NCBI RefSeq assembly: GCF_001245615.1
Contig: NZ_CWKH01000002.1
Span: 1,364,001 to 1,428,000 of the forward strand
DNA: 64,000 bases
Direction of reading: 5' to 3'
DNA from: Mycolicibacterium neworleansense
GTDB taxonomy: Bacteria > Actinomycetota > Actinomycetes > Mycobacteriales > Mycobacteriaceae
Both the position numbers and the translations under genes were made by a program. Positions 11,601 through 28,811 of this stretch are shown here, piece after piece. Under the pieces are notes generated by a model. The model was not told the DNA's origin. It searched no databases and saw nothing but the letters and a program-made list of their open reading frames with translations. The first letter of the stretch is position 1, and each line of letters starts with the position of its first letter.

Positions 11601-12243
11601 ATGGCCATAACGTGCGAGCCCGCTGTGAAGTGCCTGTGAGCTGTGAGCCGGCCTCAGAAGGTGATTCAGAGCGCCGTAGTTGTGATGTCAGTCACAAATC
11701 GGAATATCAACCGAGAACCTCTTGAATCGATCCGCGGCCTTTCAGTTAATCCGGGCGTTCGGCGCTGCGTAACGGAACGTTTACACAGCAAGCGCAAACT
11801 CGGGCCTGCCGACGGGTCGCGCCGGGTTATTGACGGTGCCGACGGCAATCCTTCCGCTCAGCGTGATTGCCCGGCCGGTCCTTTGTGAAATGGGAGAAAG
11901 GCCAGTTCCGCCGCCTCGACGCAGCCATTCCCGGGTGGCTTGACGCCGCCTTGGAGTGGCTGCGGCCGCCGGCGCTCACAGGTGGGGGACGGCCGGACTG
12001 TGACGCAGTCCGGTGCGGATCTAGCAAACTTTGTACCAATCTTTGTCCGCCCGATGGCCGGAAACCGTTCCCGTTGCTGCCCCCGTGCCGCCCGGTTACG
12101 TTTCCTCCTGCCAATCATGAGCAAGGCATGAGAGCCGGATGTGACCTCCCTAATCGGGCAGCAGATCGCCGATGGATCTCTTGGGGTGGGGACCCTGGTT
12201 GGTGAACGCACGACATCGGATCACCGACACAGCTAGGGAGAAC
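11601..12243. other. Long non-coding leader region upstream of the mspA-type porin
   Basis: About 640 nt with no convincing gene. It holds scattered AT-rich patches (around 11690-11780), unlike its surroundings. A GGGAGA ribosome site lies just before the ATG at 12244. A long upstream element has been reported to be needed for M. smegmatis mspA expression, so this region is probably regulatory. No specific operator was recognised. Confidence 0.5.
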
Positions 12244-13323
12244 ATGAAGGCATTCAGTCGGGTGCTGGTCGCATTGGTGACCGCAATGGCCGGGGTCCTC
12301 GCGGGCCTCTTCATAGGCACGGGCACCTCTCATGCGGGTCTGGACAATGAACTGAGCCTGGTTGATGGTCAGGATCGGACCCTGACCGTTCAGCAGTGGG
12401 ACACCTTCCTCAACGGTGTGTTCCCTCTGGACCGCAACCGGTTGACCCGTGAGTGGTTCCATTCCGGCCGGGCCAAGTACGTGGTGGCCGGCCCGGGTGC
12501 CGATGAGTTCGAGGGCACCTTGGAGCTGGGCTATCAGATCGGCTTCCCGTGGTCGCTGGGTGTGGGGATCAACTTCTCCTACACCACCCCGAACATCCTG
12601 ATCGACGATGGTGACATCACCGGCCCGCCCTTCGGCCTGGAGTCGGTCATCACCCCGAACCTGTTCCCGGGTGTGTCGATCAGTGCCGACCTGGGCAACG
12701 GCCCCGGTATCCAGGAAGTGGCCACCTTCTCGGTGGACGTCAAGGGTGCCGCCGGCGGTGTGGCGGTGTCCAACGCGCACGGCACCGTGACCGGTGCGGC
12801 CGGTGGCGTGCTGCTGCGTCCGTTCGCCCGGCTGATCGCCTCGACCGGTGTGTTCCCTCTGGACCGCAACCGGTTGACCCGTGAGTGGTTCCATTCCGGC
12901 CGGGCCAAGTACGTGGTGGCCGGCCCGGGTGCCGATGAGTTCGAGGGCACCTTGGAGCTGGGCTATCAGATCGGCTTCCCGTGGTCGCTGGGTGTGGGGA
13001 TCAACTTCTCCTACACCACCCCGAACATCCTGATCGACGATGGTGACATCACCGGCCCGCCCTTCGGCCTGGAGTCGGTCATCACCCCGAACCTGTTCCC
13101 GGGTGTGTCGATCAGTGCCGACCTGGGCAACGGCCCCGGTATCCAGGAAGTGGCCACCTTCTCGGTGGACGTCAAGGGTGCCGCCGGCGGTGTGGCGGTG
13201 TCCAACGCGCACGGCACCGTGACCGGTGCGGCCGGTGGCGTGCTGCTGCGTCCGTTCGCCCGGCTGATCGCCTCGACCGGTGACAGCGTCACCACCTACG
13301 GCGAGCCCTGGAACATGAACTAA
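12244..13323 (+). CDS. MspA-family outer-membrane porin with a perfect internal tandem duplication
   Basis: The 359-aa precursor has a 31-aa signal peptide ending in SHA, and the mature protein begins GLDNELSLVDGQ, as in MspA. MspA octamers form the main hydrophilic channel of fast-growing mycobacteria. Residues from VFPLDRN to LIASTG (144 aa, 432 bp) occur twice in tandem and are identical at DNA level. Removing one copy leaves exactly 184 mature residues, the canonical MspA length. Each copy carries the constriction-loop aspartates (IDDGD). The C-terminus (YGEPWNMN) is normal. Either a recent real duplication or an assembly artefact. The ATG is supported by GGGAGA. Confidence 0.9.
   Translation: MKAFSRVLVALVTAMAGVLAGLFIGTGTSHAGLDNELSLVDGQDRTLTVQQWDTFLNGVFPLDRNRLTREWFHSGRAKYVVAGPGADEFEGTLELGYQIGFPWSLGVGINFSYTTPNILIDDGDITGPPFGLESVITPNLFPGVSISADLGNGPGIQEVATFSVDVKGAAGGVAVSNAHGTVTGAAGGVLLRPFARLIASTGVFPLDRNRLTREWFHSGRAKYVVAGPGADEFEGTLELGYQIGFPWSLGVGINFSYTTPNILIDDGDITGPPFGLESVITPNLFPGVSISADLGNGPGIQEVATFSVDVKGAAGGVAVSNAHGTVTGAAGGVLLRPFARLIASTGDSVTTYGEPWNMN
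12414..13282 (+). repeat. Perfect 432-bp tandem duplication inside the porin gene
   Basis: Copy 1 is 12414-12850 and copy 2 is 12846-13282, offset by 432 bp with no mismatch seen. The five bases CGGTG occur at both outer ends and at the junction (12414-12418, 12846-12850, 13278-13282), a microhomology signature. The period is a multiple of three, so the frame is kept. Confidence 0.95.
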
Positions 13324-13416: not shown

Positions 13417-13836
13417 ATGACGCCGCAGAGCCCGGTTTCAGTGCTCGGGGAGGACGAATGCTGGCAGCTGCTGTCCAGCGTGACCCTGGGACGCCTCGTC
13501 TCAACCATCGGCACCCGGCTGGAGATTTTCCCGGTCAACTTCATCGTTCAGCGCCGCACGGTGCTGTTCCGGACGGCCGAGGGCACCAAGTTGATCAGCG
13601 CCCTGCTCAATGACCGGGTGCTGTTCGAGGCTGACGATCACACCGTGGTCGGCGGGTGGAGTGTGATCGTGCGCGGTGTCCCAGCGCTTCTGGAGAGCGC
13701 GGACGAGATCGCCGAGGCCGAGCGTGGCCAGTTGTTGTCGTGGATCTCCACCACGAAACGCCGGTATATCCGGATCCGGCCGAAAGAGATCTCGGGACGA
13801 CGGTTCGTGTTCGGCGCCGTGCCGGGGGATGTGTAG
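13417..13836 (+). CDS. PNPOx-like flavin/F420-binding split-barrel protein
   Basis: The 139-aa protein matches the small pyridoxamine 5-phosphate oxidase-like split-barrel family of mycobacteria, which bind FMN or F420. Typical features are LLSSVTLGRLV near the start, PVNFIV, LFRTAEGTKL and the C-terminal RIRPKEISGRRF. The start is supported by a leaderless -10 box. It converges on the wzm gene with a 4-nt gap. Cofactor and substrate are not determined. Confidence 0.8.
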   Translation: MTPQSPVSVLGEDECWQLLSSVTLGRLVSTIGTRLEIFPVNFIVQRRTVLFRTAEGTKLISALLNDRVLFEADDHTVVGGWSVIVRGVPALLESADEIAEAERGQLLSWISTTKRRYIRIRPKEISGRRFVFGAVPGDV

Positions 13837-28591: not shown

Positions 28592-28743
28592 GCCAATCCC
28601 CCAACCGGCGTACACCTGCTCGTGAGCCTAACTCAGGATTTGCGCCCACCCGTGCGCGAGATCGGTCATGGGACGGACTGAAACTCGGTGGAACCGATCG
28701 CCGCCAGGGTTGTCTCGCCTTGTTCTGGTCCGGCGGACCCGGC

Positions 28744-28793
28744 GCGCCACCTCCGCGGAGGAGATTCCGCGCCACCTCCGCGGAGGAGATTCC
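28744..28793. repeat. Two tandem 25-bp repeats containing a perfect palindrome
   Basis: The unit starts GCGCCACCTCCGCGGAGGAG and ends ATTCC; copy 1 is 28744-28768 and copy 2 is 28769-28793. Each contains CCTCCGCGGAGG, a perfect 12-bp palindrome. It lies between the EspC-like operon start and the 3' end of the next gene, so it may be a regulator site or a transcription barrier. Confidence 0.7.
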
Positions 28794-28811
28794 GCACCGC
28801 CGCTCGTCGGA

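What the first reader, a model, noticed from the sequence alone, without database searches (positions are those of the whole stretch)
12414..13282. Perfect 432-bp in-frame tandem duplication inside an MspA porin gene
Residues 28-171 of the 184-residue mature porin occur twice with no nucleotide difference, the frame is kept, and the junction shows the 5-bp microhomology CGGTG. Dropping one copy gives exactly the canonical mature length. If real, each chain would carry two stem hairpins and two constriction loops, which could change octamer stoichiometry, pore size and permeability, like a natural fused porin. Zero divergence means it is very recent, or an assembly artefact at a paralogue.
Basis: seen in the sequence. 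Interest (0 to 1): 0.9.

Follow-up and report, generated by a model that had tools for sequence, protein, structure and literature searches.

The report
Porin gene with doubled middle
In one fast-growing mycobacterium, most of a cell-wall channel gene is exactly doubled in frame; it is probably a recent and unstable accident that weakens the channel, but it could be a natural version of the fused channel proteins that engineers build for DNA sequencing.

Summary
A 432-bp unit (12414-12845) is repeated at once (12846-13277) with no difference, 5 bp (CGGTG) are shared at the edges, and the frame is open for 359 codons. The gene is the porM2-type MspA porin gene of a Mycolicibacterium near M. porcinum and the M. 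fortuitum group. The mature chain reads 1-171, then 28-171 again, then 172-184. A normal porM1-type gene on another contig differs in the unit by one silent base. The orthologous locus in eight named genomes is a plain 215-codon gene. The junction occurs once in the genome, and neither gene's order could supply it, so mixing of the paralogues does not explain it; no reads were available, so an artefact is not excluded. Two capped protein searches listed no two-core MspA. The second core lacks strand 1 and most of strand 2, the first lacks the last strand, and both missing ends carry family-invariant residues. I read it as a real, young, microhomology-mediated duplication with reduced or no porin function, backed up by porM1 and able to revert. 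A working fused porin is less likely but not excluded. An independent 156-bp in-frame duplication in another mycobacterial mspA gene suggests such events recur.

The parts
12097..12102 (+). TACGTT, same hexamer as the -10 signal annotated upstream of porM2 of M. fortuitum
   Evidence: sequence; hexamer named in PMC2651896 (passage); the sigma-70-type consensus scan found no promoter
12235..12242 (+). AGGGAGAA, ribosome binding site as described for porM2
   Evidence: sequence; PMC2651896 passage
12244..13323 (+). porM2-type MspA porin gene with internal duplication, 359 codons plus stop
   Evidence: Pfam PF09203 233 bits, two stretches
12244..12336 (+). signal peptide, 31 residues (PorM2 length; the porM1-type paralogue has 27)
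   Evidence: lengths as in PMC2651896; no signal-peptide predictor was run
12337..12417 (+). mature residues 1-27, present once (strand 1 and most of strand 2)
   Evidence: strands from the control model
12414..12845 (+). 432-bp repeat unit, copy A (codes for mature residues 28-171)
12846..13277 (+). 432-bp repeat unit, copy B, identical to copy A
12846..12850 (+). junction microhomology CGGTG (also at 12414-12418 and 13278-13282); the junction 25-mer occurs once in the genome
13282..13323 (+). mature residues 172-184 (last strand) and stop codon, present once
13417..13836 (+). downstream pyridoxamine 5'-phosphate oxidase-like gene (the neighbour described for porM2 of M. fortuitum)
   Evidence: (PF12900)

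Best explanation
This is a real, recent, intragenic tandem duplication of the porM2-type MspA porin gene. Shown: an exact 432-bp unit repeated in frame with 5 bp of shared sequence at the edges; a normal porM1-type gene elsewhere in the genome; plain single-unit orthologues in relatives. Inferred: it arose in one step by short-homology slippage or end joining at CGGTG; the product is exported like PorM2 but folds or assembles poorly, because core A lacks its last strand and core B lacks strand 1 and most of strand 2; permeability rests on porM1; and the perfect repeat is reversible by homologous recombination, so the culture may be mixed for copy number.
For: Exact repeat and microhomology. 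Junction 25-mer found once in the genome with up to 2 mismatches, not in the paralogue. The paralogue differs by 1 of 432 bases in the unit, silent. The locus that is orthologous by its flanks is a plain 215-codon gene in eight named genomes: M. porcinum, sp. DL99, M. senegalense, two M. peregrinum, M. houstonense, fortunisiensis and CBMA 247. Of 396 genus genomes searched (mostly 5 candidates scored in each), 265 had a match, and the only listed match over residues 1-359 was the window's own (list cut). The missing ends hold residues invariant in the 44 aligned family members, D10, R14, Q20, T23 and D172, V174, T176, Y177, and strands 3-9, 15-30 (most of it) and 173-177 of the control model. 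The crystallised rim domain 2v9u keeps both ends, 1-71 and 122-184. Engineered dimers of complete subunits were expressed 10-fold less than wild type, and identical gene copies were avoided in the first constructs because of recombination (PMC3377714, abstract and passages). In M. abscessus subsp. massiliense patient isolates, spontaneous porin-locus changes went with reduced porin protein (PMC10243398, passages). An independent 156-bp in-frame duplication in another mspA gene carries two substitutions private to its second copy, so such alleles may persist.
Against: No expression, folding or permeability data. The doubled chain was predicted at mean pLDDT 36.6 because the alignment covers only one copy, so poor folding is argued, not shown. 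The frame is kept, as selection for function would require, though chance alone gives one in three. Engineered single-chain dimers, including one of two identical M1 subunits, did form working channels (PMC3377714, abstract). No raw reads. In M. sediminis a record with a 41-residue internal duplication (P0044) is not matched by the complete chromosome NZ_AP022588.1, a warning that such duplications can be strain-specific or artefacts.
Confidence: 0.52

Rival explanations
1. A working natural single-chain double porin: each chain gives two stem hairpins and two constriction loops, so about four chains make one 16-strand pore (or a pore of another size), the junction 171-28 replacing the missing ends.
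For: Frame, signal peptide, ribosome site and both stem and constriction segments are intact. Engineered single-chain MspA dimers do form channels, and the M1-M1 form restores glucose uptake (PMC3377714 abstract).
Against: No linker; the termini of neighbouring subunits lie 4.5 nm apart and need at least 15 residues to bridge (PMC3377714 passage). Each core lacks strands with invariant residues. A protein search restricted to 294-936 residues gave 6 hits, none with two MspA cores by my reading; only the 7,996 candidates sharing most words were scored.
Confidence: 0.15
2. Artefact: a chimeric read or a wrong assembly step doubled the unit; the strain has an ordinary 215-codon porM2 gene.
For: A near-identical paralogue exists. 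Contig C2 begins in an exact 136-bp repeat, and the last 4 kb of C1, C2 and C3 show no near-identical long repeat, as in short-read assemblies. M. sediminis P0044 is doubled while the complete chromosome held for that species is not (whether it is the same strain is unknown).
Against: Both paralogues have the same order, so no mix of them by shared sequence yields the junction; it would need chimeric reads. The assembly has three contigs of 1.2-3.25 Mb and places 5.35-kb rRNA operons at three sites, so long-range data were probably used.
Confidence: 0.18
3. Different origin: two full tandem porM2 genes arose first and a deletion at CGGTG fused them, as tandem mspA genes occur in other species. 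(About origin, so not exclusive of the readings on function.)
For: Tandem mspA genes in other genomes (L011, L084, L094, L105; M. sediminis L060). A recombination that lost DNA fused tandem porin genes in an M. abscessus subsp. massiliense patient isolate (PMC10243398).
Against: The orthologous locus has a single 215-codon gene in the eight genomes examined, and nothing of a second signal peptide or spacer remains between the copies; this needs two steps instead of one.
Confidence: 0.1
4. A copy-number switch: the repeat expands and contracts by recombination, and one- and two-unit forms coexist to tune permeability.
For: Perfect 432-bp direct repeats are expected to recombine; the authors of PMC3377714 avoided identical copies in their first constructs for this reason.
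Against: No other strain of the species was available, so no second state was seen or looked for; there is no evidence of selection. Instability alone does not make a regulated switch.
Confidence: 0.07

Closest known systems
PorM2 of Mycobacterium fortuitum (PMC2651896)
   Same: 31-residue signal peptide, TACGTT and AGGGAGAA signals, pyridoxamine 5'-phosphate oxidase gene downstream, flanks unlike porM1
   Different: M. fortuitum PorM2 has 215 residues; here 359 because residues 28-171 occur twice
MspA of M. smegmatis (PDB 1uun)
   Same: the own porM1-type paralogue aligns to it over 184 of 184 mature positions without a gap; the doubled chain matches it in two stretches
   Different: MspA has one core per chain and forms octamers; two incomplete cores here
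Engineered MspA-MspB and M1-M1 single-chain dimers (PMC3377714)
   Same: two stem and constriction segments in one chain
   Different: engineered forms keep both subunits complete and join them by 14-62 residue linkers; here no linker, and 13 + 27 residues are missing at the junction
Spontaneous porin gene fusion in M. abscessus subsp. massiliense patient isolate 1S-4 (PMC10243398)
   Same: natural in-frame rearrangement at an mspA-type locus
   Different: there 99 bp of the first and 573 bp of the second tandem gene are fused, with loss of DNA; here a gain of 432 bp
   Same: internal tandem duplication of an mspA gene in frame
   Different: 52 residues, from the constriction loop onward, against 144; two substitutions between copies; lies in a tandem mspA pair

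Membership tests
MspA porin family (PF09203) | profile match over the curated cut-off | tested here: met
   233 bits against 22.9, two stretches
MspA porin family (PF09203) | mature chain of about 184 residues with one core | tested here: not met
   328 residues, residues 28-171 twice; so it is a doubled variant, not an ordinary member
MspA porin family (PF09203) | octameric pore in the outer membrane | not testable with these tools
   needs extraction, gel and bilayer work; the AlphaFold model of the doubled chain was uninformative
PorM2 orthologues | 31-residue signal peptide and conserved neighbours | tested here: met
   PMC2651896 (passages)
single-chain MspA dimers | two complete subunits joined by a linker | tested here: not met
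   13 C-terminal and 27 N-terminal residues missing at the junction, no linker
single-chain MspA dimers | two stem hairpins and constriction loops per chain | tested here: met
   sequence of both copies only; no structure

The most novel reading that the evidence does not exclude
The gene makes a working natural two-core MspA chain: an oligomeric barrel caught in the act of becoming a single-chain barrel, with altered stoichiometry and constriction chemistry. Together with the independent L105 case it would show that mspA genes explore pore geometry by internal duplication.
Probability: 0.12. Interest if true: 0.8.

Novelty: new variant of a known kind. Interest (0 to 1): 0.42.

Why it matters
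Single-chain MspA was built by engineers for nanopore work; a natural allele with two cores in one chain would be a ready test of how much of the subunit the pore needs, and of how oligomeric barrels could turn into single-chain ones. Amplification of beta-hairpins is the proposed route by which bacterial outer-membrane barrels grew (PMC6340704, start of the abstract in a search listing). Even if the allele is defective, it points to internal in-frame duplications arising in mspA genes more than once, and shows that such loci need long reads before they are trusted.

Tried and rejected
Structure of the doubled chain: mean pLDDT 36.6, pTM 0.34. MAFFT places all homologues on one copy, or splits them, so the result says nothing about folding; I ran no fold search with this model. 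The control model of the own porM1-type chain reached 73.9 and found 1uun and 2v9u first, with residues 84-94 and 99-113 (constriction region) poorly modelled.

Long open frames (492-709 aa) reported for MspA matches in eight genomes looked like natural fusions. For G251 the reported 495 is the sum of two neighbouring ORFs of 242 and 252 codons plus the stop. The other seven (G183, G304, G269, G349, G011, G133, G180) I did not check at those places. Among the loci fetched by then (L001-L114), no ORF held two matches to the unit except the window's own gene and L105.

P0044 (M. sediminis, 41-residue internal duplication, the only one of the 120 listed proteins with an exact internal repeat of 10 residues) was first counted as a further case; the complete chromosome held for that species lacks it, so it is not used as support. 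P0062 has what looks like an imperfect doubling of the constriction loop (by eye), on a 1,087-bp contig, not tested.

Sequencing technology: rRNA placement favours long-range data, the 136-bp repeat at the start of C2 favours short reads; left open. Six small contigs (C4-C9) read as N only. Promoter and terminator scans gave nothing.

Full report
Observation. Window 12414-12845 and 12846-13277 are identical over all 432 bases, and CGGTG follows at 13278-13282, so that an exact match of 437 bases stands at a distance of 432. The reading frame from the ATG at 12244 runs through both copies to the stop at 13321-13323, 359 codons. In mature numbering (G1 after 31 signal residues) the chain reads 1-171, 28-171, 172-184: 328 residues against 184.

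What the gene is. Pfam gives MspA (PF09203) with two stretches, 233 bits against a cut-off of 22.9. Signal-peptide length (31), the TACGTT and AGGGAGAA signals and the pyridoxamine 5'-phosphate oxidase gene downstream match porM2 of M. fortuitum as described in PMC2651896 (passages seen). The own genome holds a second gene, G000:C3:521522-522154, with a 27-residue signal peptide beside an mscL-like gene (name by recall from its sequence): the porM1 type.

Relatives. The locus that is orthologous by its flanks (L007, L008, L010, L012, L013, L014, L016, L023) holds a plain 215-codon gene in all eight. The genus search examined 396 genomes, drawn evenly from a larger group, with mostly 5 candidates scored in each; 265 had a match, and among the rows listed only the window's own genome was matched over residues 1-359 (the list is cut). 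In the protein collection 2,540 proteins passed E 0.001, of which the best 120 were listed; the longest of these has 257 residues and none is doubled over the whole core. A second search admitting only proteins of 294-936 residues gave 6, none with two MspA cores by my reading. Both searches scored only about 8,000 candidates that share most words, so remote two-core porins could be missed.

Paralogues and gene conversion. Between the two genes of one genome the unit is alike at 431/432 here, 427/432 in porcinum, 423 in DL99, 426 in senegalense, 421 in houstonense, 412 and 419 in two peregrinum genomes, 432 in fortunisiensis, 432 in CBMA 247, 402 in wolinskyi and 433/441 in brisbanense: 93.1-100% over 11 genomes. 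Orthologues between the own genome and five others shared 92.4-95.4%; other genome pairs were not compared. The 300-bp flanks of paralogues align at about 40-57%, against 75-92% for orthologues. So in most of the 11 genomes, though not clearly in wolinskyi (93.1%) or one peregrinum (95.4%), the genes are more alike within a genome than across species, the pattern of gene conversion. In the own genome the likeness runs from the end of the signal peptide to the stop codon; in senegalense, fortunisiensis, CBMA 247 and brisbanense the signal peptides are alike too (91-99%). The single difference in the own unit is a silent T in the porM1-type gene; the 19 other genes with a 432-bp unit in that comparison, and the window gene, have C. 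The stop codons also differ. All this weakens the argument 'zero divergence means very recent': repeats of this kind can be kept identical.

Is it real? No reads were available. For: the junction 25-mer is found once in the genome with up to 2 mismatches; the two genes share their order, so no chimera of them by shared sequence yields 171 followed by 28; the assembly has three contigs of 3.25, 1.83 and 1.20 Mb plus six tiny ones and puts a 5.35-kb rRNA operon at three places with 99.8-99.9% identity. Against: contig C2 starts inside an exact 136-bp repeat, and the last 4 kb of C1, C2 and C3 show no near-identical long repeat, which fits short reads; and for M. sediminis a doubled record (P0044) is not borne out by the complete chromosome held, which has two plain tandem genes. 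I give the artefact 0.18.

A second case. Of 134 distinct mspA ORF regions (loci L001-L114) scanned for tandem duplication in any frame, 2 carry one: the window's and L105. That looks like divergence after duplication, hence a lasting allele, though another mspA gene of that genome as donor was not excluded.

How it likely works. In the control model of the own porM1-type chain (mean pLDDT 73.9) the strands are 3-9, 15-30, 38-51, 59-70, 72-82, 115-119, 124-136, 139-155, 159-168, 173-177. Copy B therefore lacks strand 1 and most of strand 2; copy A lacks the last strand. These pieces hold residues invariant in the 44 family members that I aligned (of 121 at hand): D10, R14, Q20, T23; D172, V174, T176, Y177; and the crystallised rim domain retains both ends (2v9u). 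Engineered dimers kept complete subunits, used 14-62 residue linkers, and were made 10-fold less than the wild type; a gap of 4.5 nm needs at least 15 residues (PMC3377714, abstract and passages). The same paper shows that such dimers, one of them of two identical subunits, do work, which speaks against taking loss of function for granted. I infer a chain that is exported but assembles poorly, with porM1 as the working porin, and a repeat that recombination can remove. The doubled-chain prediction failed and neither supports nor refutes this.

What is known. Searches of the paper library for a tandem in-frame duplication in mycobacterial porins, for MspA with gene conversion (top 10 of 280 listed), and for single-chain MspA listed no natural two-core MspA. 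The nearest natural event seen is the fusion of tandem porin genes with loss of DNA in an M. abscessus subsp. massiliense patient isolate, with reduced porin (PMC10243398, abstract and passages). The library holds open-licence papers only.

Verdict. A genuine-looking new variant of a known porin gene, most likely a young and weakened allele. Interesting as a natural counterpart to engineered single-chain pores and because mspA genes seem to duplicate internally more than once; its reality and function rest on reads and one gel. The odds for the rivals are not strictly exclusive, since one concerns origin and one stability.

Noticed in passing
L105 1847-2158 (G068:C11): 156-bp in-frame tandem duplication inside the first of two tandem mspA genes, 154/156 identical, both differences private to the second copy.
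   Followed up: partly
window 12328-13321 and G000:C3:521522-522154: porM1- and porM2-type genes are near identical from the end of the signal peptide to the stop codon while flanks are unrelated; most, not all, of 10 other genomes show the same kind of likeness: gene conversion.
   Followed up: yes
P0044 against L060 (M. sediminis): A UniRef record of the species has a 41-residue internal duplication that the complete chromosome held here lacks.
   Followed up: partly
P0062: Constriction loop seems doubled with two different loop variants, on a 1,087-bp contig.
   Followed up: no
window 28743-28795: Exact 25-bp tandem repeat (2.1 copies, 100%) around the palindrome CCTCCGCGGAGG; gene content there not worked out.
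   Followed up: no
G000 C1 start, C3 start, C1:902087-905207: Three full rRNA operons in the assembly, two at contig ends with 3 mismatches between them; possibly one operon assembled twice.
   Followed up: partly
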